Below are positions 12,525 to 29,506 of a DNA stretch of 35,000 bases, one piece after another. The notes under the pieces were generated by a model. It saw nothing but the letters and a program-made list of their open reading frames with translations. It searched no databases and was not told the DNA's origin. Both the position numbers and the translations under genes were made by a program. How positions within the stretch are numbered: the stretch's first letter is position 1; each line of letters starts with the position of its first letter. Origin of the DNA: Bryobacterales bacterium (GTDB lineage Bacteria; Acidobacteriota; Terriglobia; Bryobacterales; UBA6623); NCBI GenBank assembly GCA_026713545.1, contig JAPOOG010000019.1, positions 1-35,000 of the forward strand, read 5' to 3'.

Positions 12525-12571
12525 CTTCCAGCTCCCGGCTGTCTCCTGAGGCGGATCGGAACGTCGCAACC

Positions 12572-13495
12572 ATGCAGCGGTATTTCTTCAAACGCTTCAT
12601 CCGGGCGGTCATCGTCGTGTGGCTGGTCGCCACGACGTTCTTCTTCGCTTTGCGGATGATCAGCGATCCGGTCGAGCTGCTGTTTTCGCAATCCGGGATG
12701 GCCACCCCTCAGGAAAAGCAAGCCATGCGGGAGTTTCTGAAACTCGACAGTCCCATCCACATCCAGTACGCGGACTTCCTGTTTTCGGCGCTGCAAGGCG
12801 ACATGGGGCACTCGTTCCGGTTCCGCCAACCGGCCTTGCCGATGTTGCTGGGGCGCTTACCCGCGACGCTCGAGCTCACCTTCGCCGCTCTGGCGATTGC
12901 CGCCGTCATCGGCTCCATTCTGGGAATCGTTGCGGCATTGAAACCTCATACGCTGGTCGATCACTTCACGATCTTCCTGTCGCTCCTGGGACAGTCGGTG
13001 CCCGTCTTTTGGCTGGGAATCGTTCTCATGCTGATTTTCGCCGTGCAACTCGGCTGGTTGCCGGCCACCGGACGCGGAGACCTGAGCCATCTCATCCTGC
13101 CCGCTTTCTGCTTGTCCACCTACCCCACGGCGAGCGTCGCTCGTTTGCTGCGGTCGAGCATGATGGACGTCATGTCGCAAGATTACATCCGGACGGCCCG
13201 CGCCAAGGGACTGCCGGAAACCGTCGTCGTCATCCGCCATGGGCTGAGAAACGCGGCGATTCCCGCGATCACGATGCTCGGTCTGCTGCTCTCTCGTTTG
13301 CTGGGAGGAGCCGTCGTCGTCGAGACGATTTTCGATTGGCCGGGGATCGGCTCGTTGGCTTACAAGGCAATCTCGCTGCGAGACTTCACGATGGTCCAGG
13401 CCGCGTCCGTTGTTTTCGGCGTGGCCGTGGTCGTGACCAACTTCGTCGTTGACATGATCTATGCCTGGATCGACCCTCGTATCAGATATGCGTGA
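12572..13495 (+). CDS. OppB/DppB-type ABC transporter permease
   Basis: 307 residues from ATG 12572. It has the typical architecture: an N-terminal helix (FIRAVIVVWLVATTFFFALRM), a periplasmic loop containing the DSPIHIQYADFL motif, and five further membrane segments. The cytoplasmic EAA loop near the C-terminus reads QDYIRTARAKGLPETVVVIRHGLRNA, which docks onto the ATPase subunits. The family imports oligopeptides, dipeptides, nickel or related small molecules. An upstream in-frame start at 12425 lies inside the repeat element and would add 49 residues absent from the family, so it was not used. oppC follows about 60 bases later. The partner ATPases (oppD, oppF) are 13 kb downstream, beyond the island. 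Confidence 0.9.
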   Translation: MQRYFFKRFIRAVIVVWLVATTFFFALRMISDPVELLFSQSGMATPQEKQAMREFLKLDSPIHIQYADFLFSALQGDMGHSFRFRQPALPMLLGRLPATLELTFAALAIAAVIGSILGIVAALKPHTLVDHFTIFLSLLGQSVPVFWLGIVLMLIFAVQLGWLPATGRGDLSHLILPAFCLSTYPTASVARLLRSSMMDVMSQDYIRTARAKGLPETVVVIRHGLRNAAIPAITMLGLLLSRLLGGAVVVETIFDWPGIGSLAYKAISLRDFTMVQAASVVFGVAVVVTNFVVDMIYAWIDPRIRYA

Positions 13496-13557
13496 CCCCA
13501 ATAAAGAGGAGGCAGCTTGAGCCGCAAGGCCATCGGCAAATCGACAGGGAGGCACGA

Positions 13558-14466
13558 GTGAGCCACGGCGGCGAGCCCTCCCCGGCCATGCGGCGGGAGC
13601 CTTCCGGGCTGAGCAACCGTCTGCCGAGGCTGCTCAGAAGCCCCGGGGCGCTGTTCGGAGTCCCCGTCGTCCTGTTGGTGCTGACGGCGGCGCTGTTTGC
13701 CCAGTACGTCTCTCCCCATGACCCATTCCAGCAGGACCTGAACCTGCGCCTCCAGCCCCCTTTCTGGGAGGAAGGAGGAGAGTTGTCCCGCCCCCTGGGA
13801 ACCGATCAGTTCGGCAGGTGCCTGTTCAGCAGGATCATCCTCGGCGGCCGTGCTTCGATCATCGTCGGCGTGTCGGCGGTATTGCTCTCGGCCTTGATCG
13901 GCATACCGGTCGGATTGATCGCAGGCTATTCGCGAGGCCGCGTGGACGAGGTCATCATGGCCATCGCCGACGTGCAGTATTCGTTCCCGTTCCTGTTCCT
14001 GGCGCTGGTGCTGAGCTATCTGCTGGGTCCGAGCCTCCAAAACACCGTGCTCGCGCTCGGCTTTGCGGGCTGGGTCACGTATGCCCGGGTCACGCGAGGA
14101 GAAGTACTGTCGATCCGGGAACGCGATTACATTCTGGCCGCCCGGGCCATCGGATGCAGCGCGACGCGCACCGTGGTGCGGCACGTGCTTCCGCAGGTCG
14201 TCACGCCTCTCATCGTCGTCGGAACCTTGCAGACAGCCTGGATGATCGTCGTCGAAGCCTCTCTCAGCTACCTGGGAATGGGGGTGCAGCCGCCAACTCC
14301 GAGTTGGGGCAACATTCTTGCCGAAGGCCGCTTGCACATGCTGAACTCCTGGTGGTACGCCACATTCCCCGGAATCGCGATCACGATCACGGTGCTGGGC
14401 CTGAACATGATGGGGGACTGGTTGCGGGATGTGCTGGATCCCCGATCACGGCTACGGAGCCTATAG
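13558..14466 (+). CDS. OppC/DppC-type ABC transporter permease
   Basis: About 302 residues from GTG 13558, which has AGGGAGG at a good distance. Family features: an N-terminal membrane helix (GALFGVPVVLLVLTAALFA), the segment PLGTDQFGRCLFSRIILGGR, and the cytoplasmic EAA loop RDYILAARAIGCSATRTVVRHVLPQ. The end region includes ASLSYLGMGVQPPTPSWG and terminates WLRDVLDPR, all typical of OppC/DppC. It pairs with OppB to form the membrane channel. A 14-codon frame (TTG 13517 to TGA 13561), preceded by its own AGGAGG, ends in a GTGA overlap with this start and could couple translation. The next gap (14467-14804) is mostly a family-1 repeat. Confidence 0.9.
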   Translation: MSHGGEPSPAMRREPSGLSNRLPRLLRSPGALFGVPVVLLVLTAALFAQYVSPHDPFQQDLNLRLQPPFWEEGGELSRPLGTDQFGRCLFSRIILGGRASIIVGVSAVLLSALIGIPVGLIAGYSRGRVDEVIMAIADVQYSFPFLFLALVLSYLLGPSLQNTVLALGFAGWVTYARVTRGEVLSIRERDYILAARAIGCSATRTVVRHVLPQVVTPLIVVGTLQTAWMIVVEASLSYLGMGVQPPTPSWGNILAEGRLHMLNSWWYATFPGIAITITVLGLNMMGDWLRDVLDPRSRLRSL

Positions 14467-14498: not shown

Positions 14499-14779
14499 AC
14501 CTGTATTTCTCACCACGTGGCGAGGCGAAGTACATGAGAGGGCCGTCAGGACGAGGCGCGCGCCGCTTGCCGCGCGCAGGCGTATGCGGCCATACCGCCT
14601 CCTTCACCCCTCGGTTCACGAAACACGAATCACGGCCATTACGGTTCGCCGGCCGTCAGACATTTCTTTCTGGAGCGAACCAGGCCCCGCCAATGGTTTT
14701 CACGAATCACGAGACACGAAACACGAATCACGGCCTTGTTATCGTATGCCGAGGCTGTCAGGTGGTGAGAAACGCAGGT
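14499..14779. repeat. Family-1 inverted-repeat element, copy B (about 281 bp, with heptamer insert)
   Basis: The ends are ACCTGTATTTCTCACCAC (14499-14516) and the inverse of ACCTGCGTTTCTCACCAC (14762-14779), two mismatches in 18. The left ~65 bp matches the same module in copies A, C, D and F, including the GCGCGCGCC-GCTT hairpin. The middle differs: it carries a roughly 70-bp module with CGTCAGACATTTCTTTCTGG, shared with 34352-34421 and 34617-34687, and two heptamer arrays. It fills the oppC to hydrolase gap. No target-site duplication is visible here. Confidence 0.8.
14701..14733. repeat. Heptamer array inside copy B
   Basis: Four units with a 7-base period, CACGAAT, CACGAGA, CACGAAA and CACGAAT, then CACGG. 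A shorter array of the same kind (CACGAAA, CACGAAT, CACGG) lies at 14617-14635. No coding function. Confidence 0.8.
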
Positions 14780-16785: not shown

Positions 16786-18183
16786 ATGAACCACACTGCC
16801 AAAATGGCCGACTATCTTTCACAACTGACCCGCGATCAGTTGCCGCATGATGTCGCCAACACGATCAAGCATTGTCTGCTGGATGCGCTGGGCGTCATTC
16901 TCGGGGGCGCGGCCTACCTCCGGGAAAACGACGACTTGCTCTTTGCGGACTACGTCCGGAGACTCGGCGACCGCGAGGAATCCACCGTTCTGGGATTCGG
17001 CTTGAAGTCCTCGTCTCGTTCGGCGGCCTTCGCGAACGGATCGCTGGCCGAAGTTCTCGACCAGTCCGACTGCATGTACGCCACCGCCAAGACGCACCCC
17101 GGCTCCAGCATCGTGCCGGGCGCCGTGTCGTTCGCCGAAGCGCAGGGATCAAGCGGCAGAGACCTGCTGACGGCGATCGCCGTGGGCTACGAAGCGACCG
17201 GACGGGCGGGGATGGCCGTGCAGCCCACGCATTGGCACATGGGTTTTCAAGCTACGGGAACGGTGAACACGATCGGCGTCGCCGCCGCCGTGGGGCATCT
17301 GTTGGGATTCGGCAACGACAAGATGGCGAACGCCCTGGGCATCGCCGGCCATATTCTGCCGATCTCGAACGGCGACGGCATCTTCAAGGGCTATACCGTG
17401 AAGCCGGTCCATGGCGGGCAGTCGGCAATGAGCGGCATCCAGGCGGCGCTGATGGCTGATTTGGGCATGACCGCCGGACCTCTTGAAGGCGAGCCGCCGC
17501 GGCATCACGCGTTCATTCGGATCACGAGCTTCGAGCCGAACCCCGAAGCCTTGACGGACGGATTGGGGGAAACCTGGTACGCCCGGGACATGGCTTTCAA
17601 ACCCTATCCGACCGGCCTGCTGGACCAGGGCCCCGCCGAAGTGGCCATCAATCTGGCCACTCGGCATGACATCAGAGCCGAAGACGTCGAGGACGTGCTT
17701 GTCTCCACCTACTCGAACGCCGTCAAGTTCACCGGCGGGCACTACACGGATGTCAACAGCACGATCTACGATTGCCAGCTTTCACTTCCCTACTCCGTCG
17801 CCGCCGGCATTCTCGATCGGCAACTGACCTGGGAGCAGTACTCGGCCAGGCGCCTGCGGGACCCCGCCTTGCACGACTTGGTCTCCCGCGTGAAGGTCGT
17901 CGCGGGAGAAGGCATGGACAAGAACTATCCGCGCGACTGGCCGGTCGAGGTGGAAATCCGACTGCGGTCCGGCAAGACCGTCAAGCGCCGCATCGAAAAG
18001 GCATGGGGGTCACCGGCGCGGCCGATGACCCAAGCGGAACTCGTGACGAAGTTCGAGCAACTCGCCGGCCGCCTCGTCGATGGCGGCAAGGTCCGCGAGG
18101 CCGCACAAAGGCTTCTCGCGATCGAGCAGCAGCGGCATTGCGCCGAGGTATTGGCCCTGCTCGATTGCGAAAGCCCGTATTAG
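16786..18183 (+). CDS. MmgE/PrpD-family protein
   Basis: 465 residues, the usual length for the family, which includes 2-methylcitrate dehydratase, cis-aconitate decarboxylase and iminodisuccinate epimerase. Characteristic segments are visible: HCLLDALGVILGGA near residue 28, FANGSLAEVLDQSD, KTHPGSSIVPGAVSFAEAQG, GYEATGRAGMAVQPTHWHMG, QATGTVNTIGVAAAVGHLLG, FKGYTVKPVHGGQSAMSGI and FKPYPTGLLDQGPAEVA. It should be cytoplasmic. AGGAG at about 16771 precedes the ATG. It follows the S15-like hydrolase by 37 bases and is the last gene of the block before the accessory island. The family catalyses dehydration or epimerisation of small carboxylic acids; which reaction occurs here is not determinable from sequence. 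Confidence 0.88.
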   Translation: MNHTAKMADYLSQLTRDQLPHDVANTIKHCLLDALGVILGGAAYLRENDDLLFADYVRRLGDREESTVLGFGLKSSSRSAAFANGSLAEVLDQSDCMYATAKTHPGSSIVPGAVSFAEAQGSSGRDLLTAIAVGYEATGRAGMAVQPTHWHMGFQATGTVNTIGVAAAVGHLLGFGNDKMANALGIAGHILPISNGDGIFKGYTVKPVHGGQSAMSGIQAALMADLGMTAGPLEGEPPRHHAFIRITSFEPNPEALTDGLGETWYARDMAFKPYPTGLLDQGPAEVAINLATRHDIRAEDVEDVLVSTYSNAVKFTGGHYTDVNSTIYDCQLSLPYSVAAGILDRQLTWEQYSARRLRDPALHDLVSRVKVVAGEGMDKNYPRDWPVEVEIRLRSGKTVKRRIEKAWGSPARPMTQAELVTKFEQLAGRLVDGGKVREAAQRLLAIEQQRHCAEVLALLDCESPY

Positions 18184-18288
18184 ATGTGAACTTTCAACAG
18201 GTTGTCGTCTCGGCCTTGACCGAGGAAACTGAGGGAAGTTCTCTATTTAACTTGACAAGCCGCTCACCGGCTTGCGGCCGATGCCTCT

Positions 18289-18534
18289 TTAGACGATGAA
18301 CCCCACGATGAGCAACACTACCCCGACAGCGAAGGCAGCGAAATTAACTTTAGCCAACCAATCGGGCACCGCAGCGGCTTCTTCAGGAGTCAAGTCATAG
18401 AATTCGCCGGTATAGTCGGACCGCCTTTTCGCTTCTTCGACTGCGTAGTTGTGCATGACTCCCCATGACCAGAACCCGACCACACCAGCACATATCGCGC
18501 TGATCAACCAAAACCCTCCCTGGTCCCACAACAA
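18289..18534 (-). CDS. Small two-helix membrane protein, hypothetical
   Basis: At least 81 residues with two hydrophobic segments (about FWLISAICAGVVGFWSWGVM and FAAFAVGVVLLIVGFIV) joined by a charged loop (YAVEEAKRRSDYTGEFYDLTPEEAAAV). The TTG at 18534 is a weak start. The same frame stays open upstream with a further hydrophobic stretch (WLGPVINVIAVFLLW) but no ATG, so the N-terminus is uncertain and the protein may be longer or truncated. No family recognised. It lies at the left border of the accessory island, opposite to its neighbours. Confidence 0.45.
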   Translation of the reverse strand: MLWDQGGFWLISAICAGVVGFWSWGVMHNYAVEEAKRRSDYTGEFYDLTPEEAAAVPDWLAKVNFAAFAVGVVLLIVGFIV

Positions 18535-18824
18535 GAAGACGGCAATAACATTGATTACTGGACCTAACCACCCATTCAGGTGTACCTCTGAAACCTTGCT
18601 CCCGCTCCCAGCGTATCACTGCCAAGTCTGCGGTATTCTGAACCTGCAAGCATCAGTCGGTGATACCCGTATGCCGGGCTGCCTGCGGTATACGACAGTC
18701 GAACGACGCAGGCCTCGCGTAGCTCCCGTGAGTCGCGCTGAAGAGTCGGGTCCCCGCCTTGTTTCACCGACATGGTGCTTACAAACAGCCCGTCACCCGG
18801 ACCTGCCGATACGAGGAGCGGATC

Positions 18825-19070
18825 ATGAAAAGAGCAGTCATGGGCGCCGTTGCGTCCATCCTAGCGTTAGCAGTTTCGTTCGCCGAGAACCAGCGCCGTG
18901 AACTCCTCGAACTCATAGGGGAGGTCGGTTCGGTCGAGATATCAGGCCAGGCAGGGACAGGAACGCAGACCGGAGTGCTCGTTCTCGGACTGAGAGCAAA
19001 CCCGACCGGGCCGTTTACGACGCTCTTCCCGATGATTCCGTTGACTGGTTATCTGGACGACATCGAATAA
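18825..19070 (+). CDS. Small secreted protein, hypothetical
   Basis: 81 residues from ATG 18825, preceded by GAGGAG at good spacing. The first ~22 residues (KRAVMGAVASILALAVSFA) look like a signal peptide. The mature part contains ELIGEVGSVEISGQAGTGTQ and a hydrophobic segment (VLVLGLRANPTGPFTTLFPM). No family recognised. It is isolated in the island's left part, with decayed sequence on its right. Confidence 0.45.
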   Translation: MKRAVMGAVASILALAVSFAENQRRELLELIGEVGSVEISGQAGTGTQTGVLVLGLRANPTGPFTTLFPMIPLTGYLDDIE

Positions 19071-19781
19071 GAAGCAGATTACTCTTCGCATCGGAGGCGG
19101 GCGACGGTATGGCGGGAGAGGCTCGTTGTGCGGGCGACCTCCAGAACCGCGCGTTTCTCGGCGACCCGCGCTGTGGAAGCTTGCATGGCTTTCTTGCGGG
19201 CTTGGTAGCGGCCGATGATTTCACTAGGGAGGCCCGCGGGCATTCCGATCATGTCCCGATCGAAAGAAGATGCGGGGCTTTGTGATAAGGGGCGCAGCGC
19301 CCCCTATTGGGCATCAGCGTGGAGGATGGCGCCGGTGCGGCTGGAGAGGCCGGTGGCATACGTGAGGCCGCGGTCTGGGAAGCCGTGGCTGACGCCTTGA
19401 GCTAGGAAAAAGCGATGGCGGTAGAATCAAGAGATAGTCGTGTGACACCGCCGACGAGTACCTCAATGATCACAATACAATCCCTGTGGCAACACGCCTG
19501 TCGTATGGTAGTTCCGACCACGACATTACAAATAATGGGCTGCCTGGGTTGACCGCGAAGGGATACGCCCTGTCGCCGGAATAACGGACAAATCCACCTC
19601 ACCTGGAGGCAGTGAGGAGAATACAGGATCGGCAGCGATATTCAGAACTGATTTTGACTAGGTGCTTACGATATTCAGCGACTGCCCCGCAGTTGGTTCG
19701 ATTTGGGTTCCCGTCCAGGACCGGACGATTGACCTGGACGAAGCGAAGGCTCTTTGTACCTAACGCAACAGCACGCTCTGA
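19071..19781. other. Decayed stretch without an intact gene
   Basis: No complete gene is supported. On the minus strand about 19240-19077 reads as a helix-turn-helix-like tail (PSEIIGRYQARKKAMQ, then SLSRHTVARLR and a stop), possibly the end of a lost regulator or recombinase. GGGGCG-CAG-CGCCCC at 19289-19303 is a perfect hairpin without a T-run. The rest shows only short frames in all directions. Confidence 0.35.
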
Positions 19782-20102
19782 GCACTCGGATTCCTCATGA
19801 GGCAGGGGACAATGCGGGCGAATCCGTCATTCTCTCAGGCCGAGTTGGCCACATTGCCAGTTCTGGACTTCAAGACGACAAGCCCCACCATCCTCGCGGA
19901 AGCTTACGAGCAAACTAGGTACATTCCAGTCAAACCGTGGAAGAATGCGGCCGACGAAGACATGCGGGAGCGCCTCGACCGAGCCGCCGCTCATTCATCG
20001 GGGATTGCTCTTGAGACGATCAGGGACTTAAGAGTGCAGATCAGCACGGGACCGAGCCTTACCAATGAGCTCGCTGCCGAGAAAGGCAGAGGGGCCAGGT
20101 AA
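19782..20102 (+). pseudogene. C-terminal remnant resembling an N6-adenine DNA methyltransferase
   Basis: The frame is open from 19782, just after a TGA, to 20102 and reads ALGFLMRQGTMRANPSFS, then ELATLPVLDFKTTSP, YEQTRYIPVKPWKNA and EDMRERLDRAAAHSSGI. The order RANPSFS, then LPVxDF, then a helix ending with a DRAA-like motif resembles the tail of Eco57I/N12-class N6-adenine methyltransferases, where a target-recognition domain ends before a short helical C-terminus. The catalytic NPPY region is absent from the window. If correct, it is what is left of a modification gene that once preceded the nuclease operon. It could instead be a short gene starting at ATG 19797 or 19812. Confidence 0.4.
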
Positions 20103-20147
20103 AATTAGCGTGAGTGTTGCAGCTTCGGACAAAGCGTCGGGTCGGGT

Positions 20148-21299
20148 ATGGGAAAAACGATGACGCTCAAGTTCATCCATACATCGGACTGGCAGATCGG
20201 GAAGGTCTTCCGCTTTGTCGATAATGCGACGATGGGGCTTCTCCAGGAGGCCCGCCTCCGTGCCATAACGCGGCTGGGAGAGCTTGCGGAAGCGCATGGG
20301 GCTACCCACATCCTCGTAGCGGGCGATGTCTACCACATGGAGGCGCTGTCGACCCGCTCGCTTAACCAGCCATTGGAACGGATGCGAGGATTCCCAGGCA
20401 CACAGTGGCATCTGTTACCAGGCAATCATGATCCGCATCGCCCCAACGGTCTCTGGGATCAGCTTCTCCGCAAAGGACTCCCCAACAACGTACGAGTACA
20501 TATCACGCCGGAGCCGGTGATGCTTCAGGACGAGGCTGCCGTCCTCTTGCCGGCACCCCTGTTTCATCGTCGAACGCTCGCAGATCTCACGGCATATATG
20601 GACGACGTGAACTTGCCCGAAAGTCTCATTCGCGTCGGGCTAGCTCACGGCAGCGTTAAGGGATTCGGTTCCGACGGCAAGGACGTTCCAAATTACATCA
20701 CCCCAGACCGGCCAACTCGCGCCCACCTCACTTATCTAGCGTTGGGCGACTGGCATGGCCAGAAGCAGATCAACGATCGGTGCTGGTATAGCGGTACACC
20801 TGAAATCGACGCTTTTGATGTGATCGACGGTGGTCAGGCGTTACTTGTAGACATCGAGGGGCCGCATGCGGTCCCTACCGTGAAACCCATCGCGACGGGA
20901 TATTACAGGTGGATAACGCTGTTAGAGCAGGTTAATAGCCGAGCGGACATCGACTACCTTGCCGAGAAGCTGCGGGATATCGCTGACGAACTGGATCGGG
21001 TGCTTATCCATCTGTCGGTGGAAGGTGCGCTGTCGTTGGAGAACCGGCAATATTTCGAGGAACAAATTGTAGACGGCGTATCGGCCGCGTTTTGTTTTAT
21101 GCGCGTCGATGATCGCCGCCTGTTCCCACAGCCCACAGCCGAAGATCTGGATCGAATCGACCGGGGAGGTTTCGTGCGCACGGCCGCCGATGAGTTGAAG
21201 CGACTCGCCGAAGAAAGCGAAAGTGATGGCGGTATCGCCGCCGCAGCGCTGCAACGTCTTTATATTGAGCATAGAAAACTGCAGGCAGAGCAGCGATGA
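20148..21299 (+). CDS. SbcD/Mre11-like metallophosphoesterase (DNA repair exonuclease family)
   Basis: 383 residues with the calcineurin-like phosphoesterase motifs in order: Asp14 in TSDWQIGK, Asp60 in AGDVYH, GNHDPH at 92-97, His167 in GLAHGS and GDWHGQ at 200-205. Motif I is D-W-Q rather than the D-x-H of SbcD and Mre11, and the last motif is G-D-W-H, both seen in a divergent SbcD-like subgroup. ATG 20160 is an alternative start four codons in. The C-terminal ~130 residues would be the capping and ATPase-contact region. The stop overlaps the next start (ATGA, 21296-21299), so translation is coupled to the SbcC-like ATPase, the expected partner. It probably acts as a DNA nuclease gated by that ATPase. 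A role in defence rather than housekeeping repair is inferred from the neighbouring OLD-family gene. Confidence 0.85.
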   Translation: MGKTMTLKFIHTSDWQIGKVFRFVDNATMGLLQEARLRAITRLGELAEAHGATHILVAGDVYHMEALSTRSLNQPLERMRGFPGTQWHLLPGNHDPHRPNGLWDQLLRKGLPNNVRVHITPEPVMLQDEAAVLLPAPLFHRRTLADLTAYMDDVNLPESLIRVGLAHGSVKGFGSDGKDVPNYITPDRPTRAHLTYLALGDWHGQKQINDRCWYSGTPEIDAFDVIDGGQALLVDIEGPHAVPTVKPIATGYYRWITLLEQVNSRADIDYLAEKLRDIADELDRVLIHLSVEGALSLENRQYFEEQIVDGVSAAFCFMRVDDRRLFPQPTAEDLDRIDRGGFVRTAADELKRLAEESESDGGIAAAALQRLYIEHRKLQAEQR

Positions 21300-24007
21300 A
21301 ACTCCGATCGCTCGCCGTCAACCAGTTCAAGAAATTTACGACCCCGATACGCCTCGAAGGTATTGAGCATGGCCTCAACGTCGTGGTCGGTCCCAACGAG
21401 ATGGGCAAATCGACTTTGCTCGACGCCCTTCGCGCAGTCCTCTTCGAGAAATACAGCTCTAAGGCCCAGCCCATCATGGCACTGCAGAACGACCGGAACC
21501 AGGCCGCGCCGGTGGTCCAACTGGCTTTTGAGCTTGATGACGGCCTCTACCGAATCACGAAGCGCTTCATCAAAAAACCGTATGCCCGACTGTCATGTCC
21601 GGACGGACGCAGTTTGGAAGGCGATGCCGCCGAAGATACCCTCCGCGATTTGCTCGTCTTCGACGAGCCCGGGAAGACCGGAGCGAAGCCGGAAACGCTT
21701 GGAATGTGGAATGTCCTCTGGGTACAGCAGGGGCAATCATTTACTGCGCTTGCTCTACCTGAGAGAGCGCGCTCGAGCCTTCACAGTGCTCTTGAAGCGG
21801 AAGTCGGCACCGTACTGGGAGGTCGTCGGGGGCGCGCACTGCCGCAGGCCATCGAGAAACAGCTCAGCGAGTTTATCACCGGCAACACCAACCGGCCGCG
21901 GGGTGCGTACAAAGAGCTGATGGAGAGTGTTCAGAGAGTGCGCGACGAACTTGATTGCTTACGCACCCGCCGTAAAGACCTGACACAGACATTGAACGAT
22001 CTTGAAGAAGTTCAGGAGACCCTGGAGCGCCTCACAACTGGCGACCGTGATAAGGCGGACGAGAAGGAGCTTGCTGAGGCGAGGCAACGGTATAGCTATC
22101 TTGCCGAACTGGAAGCCCGCATAGAGGCTGCGTCAACTGAACTGAAACTCCGGAAACGAACAGTCGAGCAGGCCGAGCAGGCGGCAGTCGCCCGCAAGCA
22201 ATTGAAGGCAAACATCAAAACCGAAGAAGCTGCCCTCGAAGAGGCCGGAAAGCGGCTGGATGGAATACGTCAGGAGGAAAAGGAGGAGCGATCCAGGGTC
22301 GATGCATTGCGTGCCGATGTGCGCCAGTCGGAAGCGACCGTCACTCAGGTTGACGAAACGGTGTCCCGTTATCGCCGCGTGCTCGGCACTGTAGAGCATC
22401 AGGCCCGACACCGTGATCTTGAGAGGCGGTTCGAAAAGGCCCAGGCTGCCGAAAAACGCCAACGCAAGGCCCAACAGGCTGCCGCCACCATACTGGTTAC
22501 AGATAAAGCCATCCAGAAAATACTAGAAGCCGCGCAAAGACTGGAGACCGTTCAAAGTCGCCTCAATGCGGCAGCAACGCTCGTAACTTTCGACATGACC
22601 GCGGACGGCTTGTCCGGCATCAAAGTTGATAGGGAGCCACTCACCGCCGATCGATCGTCCGTTCAGGCTGTCGAGCCTGTCACCATTACCATTCCGGATC
22701 GTGGCCGGATCACGGTCGAGCCGGCCATTAAGGATCGCGATAAGCTGCTTCTTCAGCAACGCGATGCCAAGACGGCACTTAAGGAAGTGCTGGAGGGCGC
22801 TGGTGCCAAATACGTGGCCGATGCTGAAGATCAATATGCCAAGCGTCAGAAGCTGTTGGGTGACGCGAACCTTGCCCGTCAGGAGGCCGAGTTGTACGCT
22901 CCCGCAACGAACGACTACGAAGCCGGGGCGCAGGCACTCTCCGACTACATCGGAGGTCTAAGGCAGGTTCTGAAGCGCGAGATTAACGAATTGGATTTGC
23001 AGGATCTGCCGGCGCGTCAAGAGGCCGAAACGGCATTGCAAAAAGCCCAAAATCATGCGGATGAGACCCGAAGTGCGCTGGCTGCTGCGCGTGCTTCCTT
23101 GAGCGGGCCGGAGAATCTCTTAGGAGCGCTCCAAACAGAAATCGGTACGCTTCAGGGCCGGCACGACGAAAGCAAGGAGCGGCTCGAAAAGCTTCAGGCC
23201 GAGGTTGCTCAGGCGGAAAAAGACCGTTCTGACAGTGAGCTTCAGTCCGCCATCGAAGCGGCACGTGCAGCCTTGTCAGAACAGAAAACTGCTATTGCAG
23301 GTCTTGAGGCGCAGCGCACTGATGAGACCCTGCCACAATTGAAGGCACGTATCGGCCGCCTCGAAAGGGCTCTTGAGGACAGACGTGAGAAACGCGCAAA
23401 TCTGAAGGAAAGAATGGCCGGTCTCAAATCACGCATCGAGGCCGCTGAAGGTGCCGGACTCGACGAAGCCATCGCACAAAAGGCCCGTGACCTTGAACTC
23501 ATGGAAGAAGAAAAGCGCCGGCAGGGCCGTGAAGTCCAGGTCCTGAGTCTCCTGCTATCGACTTTGCGCGGGGCAGAGCAAGAAGCCAAGGAACAGTATT
23601 TGTCGCCCGCGCTGAGCCGTGTTCGGCCGTATCTTCAACTTCTGTTTCCCGGTGCTGACATCCAACTTGATGAGAACCTTCAGATTACCGGCATGGTGAG
23701 AGAAGCAGGTTATGAGGAAGCCTTCAATCGCCTTAGCATGGGCACCCAGGAACAGATTGCCGTCCTCGTTCGTCTTGCGTTCGCGGAGATGCTGGTCGAA
23801 CAGGGCCACCCTGCGACCGTCGTTCTTGATGATGCCCTTGTGTTTTCGGACGACCGGCGGATGGGACGCATATTCGACATCCTCAACATGGCGTCCCGAA
23901 ACGTCCAAGTGATTGTCTTTACCTGCCGGGAGCAACTCTTCGAGGGTCTCGGCGGTCGGCAGTTGTCGCTTGAGCCAGAATGCAGCGAAGAGCTTGCCTC
24001 GGCGTAG
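21296..24007 (+). CDS. SbcC/Rad50-like SMC-type ATPase lacking a zinc hook
   Basis: 903 residues, head-coil-tip-coil-head. The N-terminal head starts FKKFTTPIRLEGIEHGLNVV and has Walker A GPNEMGKST (32-40). The C-terminal head has a degenerate ABC signature RLSMGTQEQIAVLVRLAFA (812-830), Walker B VVLDDALVFSDD (842-853) and FTCRE (875-879) at the switch position. Long charged coiled coils cover about 205-420 and 560-765. Where Rad50 and SbcC carry a CxxC zinc hook, this protein has a short beta-like segment, about 428-478 (SGIKVDREPL, VEPVTITIPDRGRITVEP). No CxxC occurs anywhere in it. It should pair with the phosphoesterase encoded by the overlapping upstream gene to process DNA ends. The OLD-family gene follows 15 bases later. 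Confidence 0.88.
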   Translation: MKLRSLAVNQFKKFTTPIRLEGIEHGLNVVVGPNEMGKSTLLDALRAVLFEKYSSKAQPIMALQNDRNQAAPVVQLAFELDDGLYRITKRFIKKPYARLSCPDGRSLEGDAAEDTLRDLLVFDEPGKTGAKPETLGMWNVLWVQQGQSFTALALPERARSSLHSALEAEVGTVLGGRRGRALPQAIEKQLSEFITGNTNRPRGAYKELMESVQRVRDELDCLRTRRKDLTQTLNDLEEVQETLERLTTGDRDKADEKELAEARQRYSYLAELEARIEAASTELKLRKRTVEQAEQAAVARKQLKANIKTEEAALEEAGKRLDGIRQEEKEERSRVDALRADVRQSEATVTQVDETVSRYRRVLGTVEHQARHRDLERRFEKAQAAEKRQRKAQQAAATILVTDKAIQKILEAAQRLETVQSRLNAAATLVTFDMTADGLSGIKVDREPLTADRSSVQAVEPVTITIPDRGRITVEPAIKDRDKLLLQQRDAKTALKEVLEGAGAKYVADAEDQYAKRQKLLGDANLARQEAELYAPATNDYEAGAQALSDYIGGLRQVLKREINELDLQDLPARQEAETALQKAQNHADETRSALAAARASLSGPENLLGALQTEIGTLQGRHDESKERLEKLQAEVAQAEKDRSDSELQSAIEAARAALSEQKTAIAGLEAQRTDETLPQLKARIGRLERALEDRREKRANLKERMAGLKSRIEAAEGAGLDEAIAQKARDLELMEEEKRRQGREVQVLSLLLSTLRGAEQEAKEQYLSPALSRVRPYLQLLFPGADIQLDENLQITGMVREAGYEEAFNRLSMGTQEQIAVLVRLAFAEMLVEQGHPATVVLDDALVFSDDRRMGRIFDILNMASRNVQVIVFTCREQLFEGLGGRQLSLEPECSEELASA

Positions 24008-24022
24008 GTTCGGGACGAGGAA

Positions 24023-25966
24023 ATGAGAATTGAATCTGTCCACATAGAAAACTTTCGCTCATTTGAAGATGCGATCGTTCCCTTCAACAATTACGCCTGT
24101 CTTGTCGGTCCGAACGGCGCCGGAAAGTCGACGGTCCTAACGGCCTTGAACGTCTTCTTCCGCGAATCTGAAAATCTGCCGACCGACCTCAGCCAACTGG
24201 AACAAGAAGATTTTCACTGCAAGAACACTGAGGCTCCGATCCGGATCACGGTAACTTTTTGCAACCTGAGCAAAGAAGCCCAGGACGATTTTTCCGATTA
24301 CGTTCGGCAGGGACGGCTGGTCGTTTCGGCCGTTGCCACCTTCGATGAGGCAAGCGGTAAGGCGCAGGTCAAACAATACGGGCAGCGCTTGGGCATGACG
24401 GCGCTGAGGCCGTTCTTCGAGGCGCTGGACGGGGGCAAAAAGGTTGGCGAACTGAAGGTAATCTATAACGATCTCCGCGGAACATACCCGGACTTGCTGG
24501 CGCCGGGTACCAAAGACGCCATGGTGACGGCCCTGCGTAATTTCGAGGCCGCTCTACCGGATGAATGCGAACTTATCCCCAGCGAGGATCAGTTTTACGG
24601 CTTCTCCAGAGGGAAGAACCGTCTCGAAAAGCACGTGCAGTGGGTTTATGTCCCGGCCGTCAAGGACGCGACTTCCGAACAAGTGGAGGCCCGAAACTCG
24701 GCTCTCGGAAAACTGCTTGCTCGCACTGTTCGTTCACAGACAAATTTCGACGAGACAATCAAGATGCTGCGCACGCAGATGCAACAGCAATATCAAGAAC
24801 TTCTCGACGGCAACCAAAGCGTTCTTGATGATATTTCGTCGGCGCTCCAGTTGCGCATCGCCGAGTGGGCACACCCTGATGCGCGCTTGCGCCTTCAATG
24901 GAAACAAGATCCTGAGAAATCGGTGCGTGTCGAAGAGCCTTGGGCCCACATTCTTGCCGGCGAAGGCGAATTCGAGGGCGAGCTTGCTCGTTTCGGTCAT
25001 GGGCTTCAGCGCTCATATCTGCTGGCACTGCTGCAGGAACTCGCTGGGGCCGATGATGCCGCTGGGCCCATGCTCATTCTCGCCTGCGAGGAGCCGGAAC
25101 TCTATCAGCATCCGCCACAGGCCCGTCACCTAGCTGCAGTCCTCAACACTCTCAGCCGAGGCAATGCGCAGGTCATTGTCTCGACTCATGATCCGCTTTT
25201 CGTCTCTGGCCAAGGATTCGAAGATGTTCGCATGATCCGCAAGGATCCCGGACAACGACATTCTGCGGTTTCCCATCTGTCATTCAATGAAATCGCGCAG
25301 GCTGTTGGGGCGGCCACGGGCGCACAGCCGGCAAAGCCAGAGGGAATGCTTGCGAAGATCCATCAAGCTTTGCAACCTTCTCTCAACGAAATGTTCTTTA
25401 CTCGTAGGCTTGTACTTGTCGAAGGGTTAGAGGATGTTGCCTATCTCTGGTCTTTTATGCATCTCCTCGATAAAGAAGATGAGTTCCGACATTTGGGCGG
25501 GCACATCGTAGCCGCAAACGGTAAAAGCGAGCTGCTTCAGCCACTTGTTATCGCAAGGCATATGAGAATCCCGACATATGTCATTTTCGATGCTGATGCA
25601 GACAAACAAGACAAGAACGGCAGCCGGGCCAAGCATGAAAAGGACAACAGCGCACTATTAGCACTCCTTGGCAAGGCGGGTGACGACCCCTTGCCGGCAG
25701 CGACATACTCGGGCCGCGGTTTCACGATGTGGCATTCCGACATTGGCGCGATCGTCGAAGCCGATATCGGAAAGCATGAGTGGGCGGAATACCGCGCAGA
25801 GGCCGACAAGCGTTACGGTCATGCTGGTGGGCTGCGCAAGAATTCACTGCACATCGGCGCTAGCCTAGCCTTCGCTTGGGAAGACGGAAAACGTCCGGCC
25901 AGTCTCGCACAGGTTTGTGCCGCCATTCTGGATACGGAAAACTACGTGTCAGAGTCGAAGGGGTAG
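24023..25966 (+). CDS. OLD-family ATP-dependent nuclease (ABC ATPase plus TOPRIM)
   Basis: 647 residues. The N-terminal ABC ATPase begins IESVHIENFRSFEDAIVPF and has Walker A GPNGAGKST (29-37), an insert of ~260 residues, the signature-like FGHGLQRSYLLALL (324-337), Walker B LILACEEPELYQHP (351-364) and the H-loop IVSTHDPLF (385-393). The C-terminal TOPRIM domain has Glu467 (LVLVEGLEDVAYL), ANGKSE (498-503) and IFDADAD with Asp523 and Asp525, so the metal-binding acidic residues are present. This is the domain order of OLD nucleases and Gabija GajA. No UvrD-like helicase (the GajB partner) or reverse transcriptase lies next to it; its operon partners are the SbcD- and SbcC-like genes. An integrase remnant in the opposite direction begins at the base after its stop. 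Confidence 0.88.
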   Translation: MRIESVHIENFRSFEDAIVPFNNYACLVGPNGAGKSTVLTALNVFFRESENLPTDLSQLEQEDFHCKNTEAPIRITVTFCNLSKEAQDDFSDYVRQGRLVVSAVATFDEASGKAQVKQYGQRLGMTALRPFFEALDGGKKVGELKVIYNDLRGTYPDLLAPGTKDAMVTALRNFEAALPDECELIPSEDQFYGFSRGKNRLEKHVQWVYVPAVKDATSEQVEARNSALGKLLARTVRSQTNFDETIKMLRTQMQQQYQELLDGNQSVLDDISSALQLRIAEWAHPDARLRLQWKQDPEKSVRVEEPWAHILAGEGEFEGELARFGHGLQRSYLLALLQELAGADDAAGPMLILACEEPELYQHPPQARHLAAVLNTLSRGNAQVIVSTHDPLFVSGQGFEDVRMIRKDPGQRHSAVSHLSFNEIAQAVGAATGAQPAKPEGMLAKIHQALQPSLNEMFFTRRLVLVEGLEDVAYLWSFMHLLDKEDEFRHLGGHIVAANGKSELLQPLVIARHMRIPTYVIFDADADKQDKNGSRAKHEKDNSALLALLGKAGDDPLPAATYSGRGFTMWHSDIGAIVEADIGKHEWAEYRAEADKRYGHAGGLRKNSLHIGASLAFAWEDGKRPASLAQVCAAILDTENYVSESKG

Positions 25967-26140
25967 CGGCCCAGACTTGCAACATGGGTTGCCGTTCTGG
26001 CAGGAACGCCGTCCGGTTGTAGGCCAGTCCGTTAGGATCCCGCACCGCTTGGGCCAACTTATGCTGGATGAAGTTGGGAGGAAGCCCAGCACTTCATCCA
26101 GAATGGTTCGTGCCATTGCTCCAAAGCCATACATCGTCAA
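25967..26140 (-). pseudogene. P4-type tyrosine integrase, C-terminal remnant
   Basis: On the minus strand, about 26134-26070 reads MYGFGAMARTILDEVLGF. After a frameshift near 26070, another frame continues NFIQHKLAQAVRDPNG and LAYNRTAFLPERQPMLQVW. This matches the C-terminal part of P4-type phage integrases, in which HGFRAMART precedes a motif ending NRTAHLPERRKMMQ. The usual His and catalytic Arg of HGFR are Tyr and Gly here, so the protein is dead in addition to being frameshifted. The match breaks off right at the end of the OLD-family gene. It is a remnant of the mobile element that probably delivered the neighbouring operon. Confidence 0.65.
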
Positions 26141-26976
26141 CCGATCCTGGCAGCGTCCTTGTAGTAGCTCAGGAACGCCTTGCTACCGATCGCTTCGATG
26201 TGATTGTGACCCGCAAGGACAAATGGATCGTGAGTCGGCTCCGCCGCGCCGCCGGATACGGCCCGCCATCGGCACCTCGCGAGTTCGTCAACGGAGAGAG
26301 CATGCTGGAAAAAGCTCGCTAACCTGCGTCCCGCACTATTGCTCCACTATGCAAGGAGGCGGAATCGGTCCGATGAAAGACGATGCCTGAAACTCCTCTT
26401 TGTTGACAGTGATTTTTGGGGTGCTTCTTTGTGGGCGAGTCAGCCGGAGAACTTGCTCCCTCCGATCCCTCCTGTGGGACTATCTCGCCTTTGGGGTTCA
26501 TCACCGATGCTAAACGTCGCTCTTCTCCCACTCTTGCTCGATCGCTCGCAACAGATCTTCTCCAACGATCCGCCAGTCGGATCAGAGGCCACGTTCATCG
26601 GCAACATCCGTTGTTGAGCTAGTGTTGAACTCTTCAAAAAGGCCACAGAGATCTATCGTCCTGCCGGCCCCTGAAGCCCAAGAGGGTCTAGCGCAGAGGA
26701 AGTCTGAGTTCATACGCCGTCAGTACATAGCAAGTCATCTCTTCGGTTCGCAAGCAGCCCTGCAATCGCGCAGACGTGGTTAGTAAAGCCGAACCCTTCA
26801 CTCAGACCGCAATACGCAGGGCACAAGCCGCGATGGCTGCCACTGCTACAATTGGCACCGGCCACACGCCAGTCTCAAGGCCTAAGCGCCCATCGGCCGA
26901 ACCGGCCTGACCGGCGACGACCCGTTGAGATTCCTCGGCCAGAGGCTTCGCGAACTCGCTCGTTGAGACAGCAAGC
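26141..26976. other. Decayed stretch between the nuclease operon and oppD
   Basis: No intact gene is supported. A short plus-strand frame ending at 26322 (LATDRFDVIVTRKDKWIVSRLRR region) has no recognised family. At the right end, 26840-26888 (read on the minus strand) shares about 85% identity over 39 bases with 28200-28240. No tRNA or clear attachment-site repeat was seen, although an integrase remnant lies at the left end. Confidence 0.4.
26840..26888 (-). repeat. Family-3 repeat, copy 1 (left of oppD)
   Basis: On the minus strand this contains CCTTGAGACTGGCGTG, GGCCGGTGCC and TTGTAGCAGT in that order. The same order occurs on the plus strand at about 28190-28240 with 6 differences over the best 39 bases. 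The two copies therefore lie in opposite orientation on either side of oppD. In one frame both would read LETGV-P-PIVAV, so they may also be relics of a shared coding segment. Confidence 0.45.
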
Positions 26977-27969
26977 ATGACGGTGATCCTGGAAGTCAAA
27001 GACGTCGTGACCCGCTTCCGGATGTCGGAGAAGACGGTCCATGCGGTCAACGGAGTCTCGTTCAACCTCGACGAACGAGAGATCCTGTGCGTCGTCGGCG
27101 AAAGTGGCTGCGGCAAGAGCGTCACCATGCTGTCGTTGTTGCGTCTGATCCCGGAGCCTCCCGGTGACATCGTCCGCGGCGAAGCGAATTTCCTGGGGCG
27201 GAATCTGTTCGAGCTGACGGCGGCGGAACTGCGCGAAGTCCGCGGCGCCCAGATCGGCATCGTCTTCCAGGATCCGATGACGTCTCTCAATCCGGTGCTC
27301 CCGATAGGCCGTCAGATCGCGGAAGTGCTGGTCGAACACCTGGGCTTGTCGCGCAGCCAGGTCAGAAGTCGAACCATCGAGTTGCTGGAACGGGTAGGCA
27401 TCCCGCATGCGGAATCCCGTATCGACAACTACCCTCACCAGTTCTCCGGCGGCATGCGCCAGAGGGTCATGATCGCGATGGCCCTGGCCTGCAATCCGAA
27501 GATCCTGATCGCCGATGAGCCCACCACCGCTCTGGATGTCACGATCCAGGCGCAGATCGTCGATCTGGTCAAACGGTTGCGCCGGGATCTCGGCATGGCC
27601 GTGATCTGGATCACGCACGACCTCGCGCTAGTGGCGAGCCTGGCCGAACGGGTGGTGGTGATGTACGCCGGCTTCATCGTCGAGCAGGCGCCCGTCAAGG
27701 AACTCTTCAACAATCCCAGGCACCCGTACACGATCGGCCTGATGCAATCCGTACCGGGCATGGACGATGCCACCGGGCAGCCCCTGGCCAGCATCGCCGG
27801 CGCTCCACCCGACATGCTGCGGGCTCCCCGGGGCTGCCCGTTCGCCCCGCGCTGTTCGTACGTCATGGACCGCTGCCGGGAGGAAAACCCCGAGCTGCTC
27901 CCGGTCGCTCGAGATCACGTCGCTGCTTGCTGGTGGGATGTGGAGGAAGAACGCCCCCGTAATGGCTAG
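26977..27969 (+). CDS. OppD/DppD-type ABC transporter ATPase
   Basis: 330 residues. Walker A is GESGCGKSV (41-49), with the Q-loop in GIVFQDPMTSLNPVLP, signature FSGGMRQRVMIAMAL, Walker B ILIADEPTTALD and the H-loop in WITHDLALV. The C-terminal oligopeptide-transporter extension follows, with the conserved cysteine cluster GCPFAPRCSYVMDRC and a final ACWW. In OppD/DppD proteins this cluster binds an iron-sulphur centre. The protein powers import through the OppB and OppC permeases. Its TAG stop (27967-27969) is formed by the terminal CTAG of the repeat element that follows, and the last codons before it (RNG) differ from typical tails, so the natural C-terminus may have been altered slightly. 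Confidence 0.9.
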   Translation: MTVILEVKDVVTRFRMSEKTVHAVNGVSFNLDEREILCVVGESGCGKSVTMLSLLRLIPEPPGDIVRGEANFLGRNLFELTAAELREVRGAQIGIVFQDPMTSLNPVLPIGRQIAEVLVEHLGLSRSQVRSRTIELLERVGIPHAESRIDNYPHQFSGGMRQRVMIAMALACNPKILIADEPTTALDVTIQAQIVDLVKRLRRDLGMAVIWITHDLALVASLAERVVVMYAGFIVEQAPVKELFNNPRHPYTIGLMQSVPGMDDATGQPLASIAGAPPDMLRAPRGCPFAPRCSYVMDRCREENPELLPVARDHVAACWWDVEEERPRNG

Positions 27970-28149
27970 CCTGCATTTCTCGCCACGTGGCGAGGCGAAG
28001 TGCGTGAGAGGGCCGTCAGGACGAGGCGCGCGCCGCTTGGCGCGCGCAGGTGTACTTGAAAGTACATCGAGCACGGCAAGCAAGCGCAACGAAGTCATGG
28101 CGGTCGTATCGTGTGCTTCGATCGTCAGGTGGTGAGAAATACAGGCTGA
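27966..28149. repeat. Family-1 inverted-repeat element, copy C
   Basis: The left end is CTAG plus CCTGCATTTCTCGCCAC (27966-27986). The right end is the inverse of CCTGTATTTCTCACCAC (about 28129-28145) followed by CTGA. The interior is very close to copy A, with the perfect hairpin GCGCGCGCC-GCTT-GGCGCGCGC (about 28026-28047) and TGTACTT/AAGTACA. It sits in the oppD-oppF gap and its CTAG forms the oppD stop codon. The right outer tetramer is not CTAG, unlike copy A. Confidence 0.8.
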
Positions 28150-28189
28150 GCCTCAACATGTTGTCCCCCCGCCAGACCGATTCGACGCA

Positions 28190-28240
28190 CAGGCGGCTTG
28201 ACCTTGAGACGGGCGTGAGGCCGATGCCCATCGTAGCGGT
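28190..28240 (+). repeat. Family-3 repeat, copy 2 (right of oppD)
   Basis: Plus-strand counterpart of 26840-26888, with CCTTGAGACGGGCGTG, GGCCGATGCCC and TCGTAGCGGT in the same order. See copy 1. Confidence 0.45.
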
Positions 28241-28400
28241 CCAGTCCCTGAGCTGCGGTCGAGCAACCTGTCGCGGCCCGATAGCAGGCGGTACGCTTGC
28301 GCACGGTGCGCGCTCTGGTCCTCGTCGAGGATCCGCCGGTCGTCGTCGGCTCGACTCTGTGGGGTCGCCTCGTCATTCTGATGGATGTTCACCCAAGAAA

Positions 28401-28457
28401 CACGAGACACGAATTACGGACTTTCACGAATCACGAGACACGAGACACGAATCACGG
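28401..28457. repeat. Heptamer array ahead of oppF
   Basis: CACGAGA, CACGAAT (28401-28414), a 10-base break, then CACGAAT, CACGAGA, CACGAGA, CACGAAT and CACGG (28425-28457), in strict 7-base phase within each block. It ends 23 bases before the oppF start, so it occupies the likely leader region. Confidence 0.8.
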
Positions 28458-28480
28458 CCTCTGAATGAGAATCACCTGTC

Positions 28481-29506
28481 ATGACTGCTGAGCCGGATAC
28501 GATCCTCAAAGTCGTCGACCTCAAAGTTCACTTCCCCATTTTGCGGGGCGTGTTGCAGCGCAAGGTGGGGTCCGTCAAAGCCGTCGACGGCGTGACCTTC
28601 GAGGTGCGGCGCGGAGAGACTCTCGGCGTGGTCGGTGAAAGCGGATCGGGGAAAACAACCCTGGGACGCGCCATCCTGAAGCTGGTTCAACCGACCGCGG
28701 GCCAGGTTCTCTTCGAGGGTCAGGACCTGTGCCGACTCGATGAAGGCAGTCTGCGTCAGCGCCGGCGGCGCCTCCAGATGATCTTTCAGGACCCGTACTC
28801 GTCGCTCAATCCGCGGATGCGGGCCGAAGACATCGTCTCGGAGCCGTTGGTCGTTCACGGCGGCGAACGCGGCCAGGCCCTCGACGAACGGACCGCTGAA
28901 CTCTTCGAGACGGTGGGGCTCGATCTGCAATTCCGCCGGCGCTACCCTCATGAGCTTTCCGGCGGTCAGCGCCAGCGCCTGGGGATCGCGCGAGCTTTGG
29001 CCCTCAACCCTTCGCTCATTGTGTGCGACGAGCCCGTTTCGGCTCTCGACGTATCCATCCAGGCCCAGATCGTGAACCTCCTGAAAGAGCTTCAACGGCT
29101 ACGGAAATTGTCGTACCTGTTTATCGCCCACGACCTGAGCATGGTTCGTCACATCTCCGACCGGGTGGCGGTGATGTACTTGGGCCGCATCATGGAACTG
29201 GCCGCGCGAGACGGTATTTACAACCGGCCTCTCCATCCCTACACGGTCGCTTTGCTTTCCGCGGCGCCTCTACCCGACCCCGGCCGCGAGGCAGCCCGGC
29301 GGCACATCGTCTTGACCGGCGGCATGCCGAATCCCGCCGATCCTCCCCCCGGATGTGTTTTCAGCACGCGCTGCCCCTTGGTCAAGGACATCTGCCATGA
29401 GCAAGTCCCCGCGTTGCGCGAGCTGCGTCCCGGCCATTTCGTGGCCTGCCACCGAAGCGACGAAGCCGGACCCGGAAGCGGCCTGCCCGCCATCAGCCCG
29501 TGGTAA
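28481..29506 (+). CDS. OppF/DppF-type ABC transporter ATPase
   Basis: 341 residues. Walker A is GESGSGKTT (52-60), with the Q-loop in MIFQDPYSSLNPRMR, signature LSGGQRQRLGIARAL, Walker B LIVCDEPVSALD and the H-loop in FIAHDLSMV. The C-terminal extension carries the cysteine cluster GCVFSTRCPLVKDIC and VACH. It is the second ATPase partner of OppD. The stop TAA (29504-29506) and the last codons (about ISPW) lie inside the inverted repeat of the family-2 element starting at 29492, so the end of the protein is encoded by repeat DNA. The start has no obvious ribosome-binding site; GAGAATCACC lies upstream of the ATG. Confidence 0.9.
   Translation: MTAEPDTILKVVDLKVHFPILRGVLQRKVGSVKAVDGVTFEVRRGETLGVVGESGSGKTTLGRAILKLVQPTAGQVLFEGQDLCRLDEGSLRQRRRRLQMIFQDPYSSLNPRMRAEDIVSEPLVVHGGERGQALDERTAELFETVGLDLQFRRRYPHELSGGQRQRLGIARALALNPSLIVCDEPVSALDVSIQAQIVNLLKELQRLRKLSYLFIAHDLSMVRHISDRVAVMYLGRIMELAARDGIYNRPLHPYTVALLSAAPLPDPGREAARRHIVLTGGMPNPADPPPGCVFSTRCPLVKDICHEQVPALRELRPGHFVACHRSDEAGPGSGLPAISPW

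What the first reader, a model, noticed from the sequence alone, without database searches (positions are those of the whole stretch)
21296..24007. SbcC-like ATPase with a beta-segment instead of a zinc hook
No CxxC occurs in the 903 residues, yet both coiled coils and both ATPase halves are present. The tip at about residues 428-478 is a short beta-like insert (VEPVTITIPDRGRITVEP). Rad50 and SbcC dimerise through the hook; this protein must link or close by another route, as some YhaN-like SMC relatives may.
Basis: partly seen in the sequence, partly recalled or inferred. Interest (0 to 1): 0.55.

Follow-up and report, generated by a model that had tools for sequence, protein, structure and literature searches.

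The report
Hookless Mre11–Rad50-like pair with beta-tip
This gene makes a long-armed DNA-handling motor that resembles the repair protein Rad50 but carries a small folded beta cap where Rad50 has its zinc clasp, and it travels with a nuclease partner, in close relatives often beside bacterial defence genes, so it may be a little-studied anti-virus or DNA-end-cutting machine.

Summary
Window 21296-24007 encodes a 903-aa SMC/Rad50-type ATPase with both head halves, two coiled coils and no CxxC. The apex (residues 428-474) is a small beta domain (AlphaFold2, ten-residue block means of pLDDT 84-93), conserved to below 20% tip identity, with no widely conserved Cys/His column. A tip profile hits 13 of 396 genomes, each time in this ATPase and beside an Mre11-like phosphoesterase; no solved structure matches.

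The family is neither SbcC/Rad50 nor YhaN: family scores are far below cut-offs or partial, Walker B reads DD, the H-loop holds Cys, and the partner reads GD[WR]H for GHxH in 50 of 51 rows.

The pair overlaps by 4 bp and is followed by an OLD-type TOPRIM nuclease, inside an 8.6-kb segment missing from a same-genus genome. In close relatives 16 of 22 informative loci carry a defence-type ATPase directly downstream, but partners change quickly. None of 8 deep-branch neighbours scanned is a known defence gene.

Best reading: a hookless Mre11-Rad50-like nuclease motor, probably dimerising through the beta tip, probably serving defence in this branch. Dimerisation and defence are inferred, not shown.

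The parts
20148..21299 (+). Mre11/SbcD-like metallophosphoesterase (383 aa as listed; most homologues start at the position of the ATG at 20160); its stop overlaps the ATPase start by 4 bp
   Evidence: Metallophos 32.3 bits; sbcd subfamily 37.1 bits, below its 77.65 cut-off; motifs HTSDWQ, GDVYH, GNHD, AHG, GDWH
21296..24007 (+). 903-aa coiled-coil ABC ATPase, the finding
21389..21415 (+). Walker A GPNEMGKST (residues 32-40)
21902..22573 (+). first coiled-coil arm, residues about 203-426, with breaks at about 246-251 and 398-402
   Evidence: AlphaFold2 secondary structure
22577..22717 (+). beta tip domain, residues 428-474, in place of a zinc hook
   Evidence: structure; conservation and distribution
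22736..23455 (+). second coiled-coil arm, residues about 481-720, with several breaks (about 502-506, 535-544, 566-573)
23732..23755 (+). ABC signature LSMGTQEQ (residues 813-820)
23819..23833 (+). Walker B VVLDD (residues 842-846); Asp846 stands where E. coli SbcC has Glu (LDEGFG)
   Evidence: DD in 40 of 40 rows; SbcC LDEGFG
24023..25966 (+). OLD-family ATPase with TOPRIM nuclease domain (647 aa), 15 bp downstream
   Evidence: AAA_15 140.8 bits and OLD-like_TOPRIM 42.3 bits, both over cut-offs; PADLOC Old 172.5 bits; VEG and DADAD motifs read from the sequence
18182..26816 (.). 8.6-kb segment absent from the matching site of a same-genus genome (G297), holding the three genes
   Evidence: flanks 94.9% and 94.6% identical in L099, with 1,469 bp of other sequence in place of this segment; GC 0.55-0.58 against 0.60-0.64 in the six kilobases before and four after, though other parts of the window are as low

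Best explanation
The gene encodes the ATPase arm of an Mre11-Rad50-type complex from a family of its own. Two ATPase heads would close on a DNA end or hairpin in an ATP-dependent way and let the Mre11-like partner, encoded in the overlapping gene, cut it; this step is inferred from homology and gene order. At the far end of the arms a conserved 47-residue beta domain replaces the zinc hook (shown by sequence and prediction). It most likely joins two arms into a closed or rod-like dimer, as the hook and the SMC hinge do (inferred). In the alphaproteobacterial branch that holds the window, the pair has become mobile cargo of defence islands. It probably attacks incoming DNA, here possibly together with the OLD nuclease directly downstream (context shown, function inferred).
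For: Pairing: 13 of 13 tip-bearing genomes of a 396-genome phylum sample, own genome included, have the phosphoesterase next to the ATPase.

Tip: block means of pLDDT 84-93 over the beta region. A tip profile built from 29 rows hits family members at E 1.5e-9 or better, the next hit being at E 0.14; E. coli SbcC and YhaN-type L052, both in the set, are not hit at E up to 10. Its best PDB sequence is at E 0.092.

No hook: no tip column with Cys/His in 10 or more of 40 rows.

Hook and hinge are interchangeable dimerisers in Rad50: PMC6969161, passages read.

Mobility: the G297 site lacks the segment. 11 of 297 phylum genomes and 4 of 41 relatives carry a match, own genome included in both.

Defence context: 16 of 22 informative close loci have an OLD, GajA or PDC-S06/AAA_13 gene directly downstream on the same strand. 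Some more distant members have SIR2-HerA, DUF4297-HerA, GmrSD or PD-(D/E)XK plus UvrD neighbours.

An OLD gene also lies directly upstream of such a pair in L059.
Against: No experiment or dimer model supports tip dimerisation. The full-length model is weak (pLDDT 73, pTM 0.33). The ten hydrophobic strand positions may simply be the core of a monomeric domain.

Partners swap quickly: L078 and L081 have ATPases 93% identical but SIR2-HerA against OLD. The quick tree needs at least 17 neighbour changes over 27 labelled rows with 12 states, for which 11 is the least possible; no shuffle control was printed. This fits chance neighbours in defence islands as well as a functional link.

None of 8 deep-branch neighbours scanned hits PADLOC at 1e-8, so an ordinary DNA-repair role is possible.

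Window motif II ends in His (GDVYH) where 45 of the other 50 rows have Asp and 5 Glu, which might weaken the nuclease here.
Confidence: 0.6

Rival explanations
1. It is an ordinary genome-maintenance SbcCD substitute: a DNA-end and hairpin nuclease for repair. The defence neighbours are only fellow passengers of islands.
For: The host shows no SbcC-model match other than this protein at E up to 0.001. None of 8 deep-branch neighbours scanned is a PADLOC hit. Neighbour genes differ between near-identical pairs.
Against: Presence is patchy (11 of 297; 4 of 41). The window copy is in a segment missing from a sister genome. Close relatives have same-strand defence-type ATPase genes directly downstream in 16 of 22 informative loci.
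Confidence: 0.3
2. The three genes act as one system in which the pair senses DNA ends and the third ATPase (OLD, GajA, PDC-S06 and others) is an exchangeable effector, as LmuA is in Lamassu.
For: Gaps of 15-122 bp on the same strand in 14 of the 16 cases, the exceptions being L023 and L024. OLD relatives sit beside such pairs in two gene orders (window, L059) and beside a different, YhaN-type pair in L052. OLD and ATPase identities correlate over six loci (Pearson 0.80, 15 non-independent pairs).
Against: In five plasmids looked at, L053-L057, a PDC-S06 relative has no annotated exonuclease/ATPase pair within 6 kb; in a sixth, L058, a pair lies 2 kb further on. Two OLD relatives, L060 and L061, have no annotated pair nearby, and OLD pieces in G073 have no pair match in that genome. 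OLD and ATPase histories disagree for L081 and L082 (49% against 68%).
Confidence: 0.3
3. The beta tip is a binding platform for DNA, a partner protein or the opposite head, and not a dimeriser; dimerisation occurs only through the Mre11-like subunit and the heads.
For: The tip is predicted to fold as a monomer. Foldseek finds no match at all at E up to 0.001, hence no dimerisation module either.
Against: Apex modules of Rad50 and SMC proteins serve dimerisation (PMC6969161 passages). The other evidence is neutral.
Confidence: 0.25
4. A degenerate SbcC that lost its hook and activity.
For: Walker B Asp in place of Glu, Cys in the H-loop, altered phosphoesterase motifs.
Against: These changes are fixed: DD in 40 of 40 and Cys877 in 38 of 38 rows that reach it, GD[WR]H in 50 of 51 rows. 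The frame is intact.
Confidence: 0.05

Closest known systems
SbcCD / Mre11-Rad50
   Same: Overlapping gene pair, phosphoesterase plus coiled-coil ABC ATPase with split head; similarity to archaeal Rad50 heads and to the N-terminal part of E. coli SbcC
   Different: No zinc hook, beta tip instead; Walker B DD, H-loop Cys, GTQEQ signature; partner mostly DxQ and GD[WR]H; family scores far below cut-offs
YhaN / YhaO (COG4717-type; the COG name and the YhaO partner are recalled)
   Same: Hookless long ATPase next to a phosphoesterase, as in L052
   Different: AAA_27 matched only at 1-51, 33 bits, against 220 bits over 1-205 for L052; L052 is not hit by the tip profile. B. subtilis YhaN itself was not compared
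Lamassu LmuB
   Same: Rad50-like ATPase in a defence context; many but not all LmuB have a hook (PMC10586767 passages)
   Different: LmuB is about 650 aa with LmuA/LmuC partners; here 903 aa with an Mre11-like partner; 51.2 bits to the best LmuB model
OLD / Gabija GajA (third gene only)
   Same: AAA_15 plus OLD-like TOPRIM
   Different: Preceded by an Mre11-Rad50-like pair; no long ORF that could be a UvrD helicase follows it directly in the window

Membership tests
Rad50/SbcC | CxxC zinc hook at the coiled-coil apex | tested here: not met
   none in P0001; 1 of 40 rows has one, at residue 26; control SbcC has CPLC at 506
Rad50/SbcC | curated family score | tested here: not met
   NF003034 58.1 bits against 700; TIGR00618 23.1 against 478.5 (that cut-off is strict, only 1 of 14 control genomes passes it)
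Rad50/SbcC | Walker B Asp-Glu and H-loop His | tested here: not met
   DD 40 of 40, Cys 38 of 38; SbcC has LDEGFG and SH
Rad50/SbcC | split ABC head with a long antiparallel coiled coil between | tested here: met
Rad50/SbcC | Mre11-type phosphoesterase partner | tested here: met
   partner motifs deviate
Rad50/SbcC | ATP-dependent end or hairpin nuclease activity | not testable with these tools
   needs purified protein
YhaN (Pfam AAA_27) | full-length AAA_27 head | tested here: not met
   33 bits, above the gathering cut-off of 22, but only 1-51 of 206; L052 220 bits over 1-205
SMC | SMC hinge domain | tested here: not met
   no hinge family among the Pfam matches at E up to 1
SMC | fold of the tip like an SMC or MukB hinge | tested here: inconclusive
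   MukB hinge 3ibp Z 5.0, rmsd 5.0 over 72 residues, tied with unrelated rows
Lamassu | LmuA/LmuC partner genes | tested here: not met
   neighbours are a phosphoesterase and an OLD protein
OLD nuclease (third gene) | ABC ATPase plus OLD-like TOPRIM | tested here: met

The most novel reading that the evidence does not exclude
A third kind of apex joint, beside the zinc hook and the SMC hinge, found in an Mre11-Rad50-like complex that in Alphaproteobacteria serves as a DNA-end sensor and cutter of a modular defence system with swappable ATPase effectors (OLD, GajA, PDC-S06, SIR2-HerA).
Probability: 0.25. Interest if true: 0.75.

Novelty: new variant of a known kind. Interest (0 to 1): 0.5.

Why it matters
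Whether Rad50-like machines need a metal hook, or an apex joint of a particular design, has been approached with engineered swaps (PMC6969161, passages). A natural, scattered family that uses a small beta cap would make the question directly testable. If the defence context is functional, Mre11-Rad50-like pairs join Wadjet and Lamassu as coiled-coil ATPase immunity. No PADLOC-DB 2.0.0 model hits the phosphoesterase at E up to 0.1.

Tried and rejected
Absence of CxxC as evidence by itself: rejected, as shuffles almost always lack it.

Cryptic metal hook: rejected. What speaks for caution: 17 of 40 rows have a Cys in the tip region, and eight close relatives share one.

YhaN membership: rejected.

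Fold of the tip: Foldseek against PDB gave nothing at E up to 0.001; an FHA domain (7rj3_B, E 1.1, prob 0.51, 51 columns, rmsd 2.7) has the highest probability among the 50 rows shown. VIA second look best Z 6.3 (condensin), within the stated noise. BFVD gave none at E up to 0.001. A weak match does not show a new fold.

One obligate three-gene system: not the leading view, because near-identical pairs have different partners and OLD and ATPase histories disagree for L081 and L082.

Viral relatives: four scans of IMG/VR; only one search found relatives, L047 (residues 1-892) and L048 (1-89).

Limits of the genome searches: one search scored 11 candidates per genome, two or three, so a few members may be missed.

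Rows dropped before counts: L001 (the window again), L011, L016, L023, L033, L036 (partial or broken) and L027 (no ATPase ORF picked) from the 40-row alignment. L008, L011, L014, L019 (contig ends) from the 26 close loci, leaving 22. L028, L029, L030, L031, L032, L034, L035 from the tree. L080 is an outlier: weak tip match, partner GHFH, longest branch. L114 and L115 partners read GDTH.

Literature: ten searches, of which I saw the listings and starts of abstracts; none listed treats this pair or its tip. Passages of three papers were read. Subscription journals are mostly absent, and the ABC-ATPase classification paper was not held.
Full report
What was checked. The ORF at 21296-24007 is intact, 903 aa, with no CxxC. 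Pfam sees SMC_N from residue 3 to 883 (50.1 bits). Archaeal Rad50 heads are the nearest solved chains (best E 9.1e-7). None of the 22 chains listed there is matched at the tip.

The tip. AlphaFold2 on residues 388-515 with 23 relatives gives mean pLDDT 87.2 and pTM 0.68, with a beta insert between two helices. The full-length run places it at the same residues. In 19 diverse rows the five strand regions each carry two positions, two residues apart, that are hydrophobic in at least 84% of letters, as in amphipathic strands. A profile from 29 rows (tip identity to the window down to 13%) hits family members and no other ORF of the loci held below E 0.14; many of those hits are training rows or near them, the weakest independent ones being L033 and L064/L080 at 1e-9 to 1e-10. 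In 396 genomes of the phylum it hits 13, once each, always inside an ORF of 896-1149 aa. All 13 have the phosphoesterase as neighbour. So in what was searched the beta tip marks this family, and it was not found in YhaN-type L052 or E. coli SbcC.

Head and partner. Walker B is DD in 40 of 40 rows and the H-loop position holds Cys in 38 of 38 rows that reach it. E. coli SbcC has LDEGFG and SH. The partner keeps GNHD and reads GD[WR]H where E. coli SbcD has GHIH, in 50 of 51 rows, the exception being YhaN-type L052. It reads DxQ in motif I in 44 of 50 rows with letters there. Later loci add GDTH (L114, L115) and GHFH (outlier L080). These are fixed changes, which argues against decay. The window alone has GDVYH, where 45 rows have Asp and 5 Glu.

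Neighbourhood. The phosphoesterase stop and ATPase start overlap by 4 bp. The OLD gene starts 15 bp after the ATPase stop. Among 26 loci of the close clade (window, L002-L025, L037), 22 show what lies downstream. In 16 it is a defence-type ABC ATPase on the same strand. OLD with TOPRIM: window, L002, L007, L009, L021, L024, L025. GajA followed by GajB: L006. PDC-S06 or its cluster: L003, L005, L010, L013, L015, L022, L023, L037 (L005 by Pfam AAA_13 and clustering with L003, not by PADLOC). In L023 the ATPase gene is broken, and in L024 the OLD ORF begins 425 bp on. The six others are L004 (a 117-aa ORF, not scanned), L012 (TPP enzyme further on), L016 (ATPase ORF cut short at 751 aa; neighbours not scanned), L017 (epimerase, other strand), L018 (SIR2-HerA, other strand) and L020 (amidohydrolase).

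More distant members. SIR2 and HerA follow in L038, L078 and L093; DUF4297 and HerA in L040; GmrSD in L086; PD-(D/E)XK and UvrD proteins in L083. OLD lies after the pair in L081, on the opposite strand in L082 and before the pair in L059. L085 has GajA divergently upstream and L084 a CHAT-TPR gene upstream. L041-L044, L046 and L079 show nothing of the kind next to the pair by annotation or the scans made. L039 and L045 have defence-like genes one or more genes away. As a contrast, eight neighbours of deep-branch pairs (L113, L116-L122; some on the other strand or second next) and two of plasmid pairs (L041, L043) gave no PADLOC hit at 1e-8; neighbours of L114, L115 and L123 were not scanned. 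This is a small contrast set, not a formal control.

Mobility. In G297, a genome of the same genus, the flanking genes are 97% identical proteins 1.6 kb apart, against 8.8 kb in the window. Alignment ends at 18181 and resumes at 26817. The other same-genus genome, G298, has neither flank gene, so it says nothing. G297 carries a 29% relative of the ATPase elsewhere. The site is rich in repeats, so how the segment came or went is open.

Partner exchange. A quick tree of 43 ATPases needs at least 17 changes of neighbour type over 27 labelled rows with 12 states; 11 would be the least possible, no shuffle control was printed, and long branches are flagged. L078 and L081 (ATPase 93%, phosphoesterase 96% over 316 aligned residues) have SIR2-HerA and OLD. 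ATPases of L081 and L082 agree at 68% but their OLD proteins only at 49%, so OLD was probably gained more than once. Repeated gain of OLD beside such pairs, plus OLD beside a different pair in L052, hints at a benefit of having both. Shared islands would explain it too.

Reading. What it works like: an Mre11-Rad50 complex. Whether it is a member of SbcC/Rad50: no, as three defining features were tested and not met. The likely role of the tip is to join two arms. In Rad50, hook and hinge are interchangeable joints (PMC6969161, passages), and E. coli Mre11-Rad50 can act against a phage (PMC12624138, passages). Lamassu shows that Rad50-like ATPases exist in defence with and without hooks (PMC10586767, passages). 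These support plausibility only.

Confidence: a separate hookless family with beta tip 0.9; tip as dimer joint 0.65; defence role in this branch 0.6; obligate three-gene system 0.3.

Noticed in passing
window 12340-12522, 14500-14584, 27965-28147, 30754-30838, 34209-34391 and others: Families of 44-191-nt interspersed repeats at about 60-95% identity, also present in the sister genome's locus; nature unknown.
   Followed up: partly
L099 2998-3170: In the sister genome the segment that stands in place of the island holds a partial copy of the 5' region of the downstream gene (window 26945-27117, 94% identical) and repeat copies.
   Followed up: no
window 12425-14466 and 26977-29506: By reading the translations, oligopeptide ABC transporter permease and ATPase genes lie on the two sides of the island, with hydrolase-like and MmgE/PrpD-like genes between; no profile was run on them.
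   Followed up: no
L052 866-10343: A Roseibium plasmid has an OLD relative (32% identical) beside a different, YhaN-type hookless pair and an nSTAND3 gene: a separate pairing of OLD with an Mre11/Rad50-like pair.
   Followed up: partly
L058 8986-17414: On a Rhizorhabdus plasmid a PDC-S06 relative lies 2 kb before a tip-bearing pair, with other genes between.
   Followed up: no
L002: Record titled Candidatus Saccharibacteria MAG carries a copy 75% identical to the window protein; possibly a mis-binned contig.
   Followed up: no
own genome G000: No SbcC-model match other than this protein at E up to 0.001.
   Followed up: no
L003, L021 and L011 upstream of the pair: Type III restriction enzyme hits in L003 (77.5 bits) and L021 (1268.5 bits), with a shared upstream protein cluster that also includes L011.
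   Followed up: no
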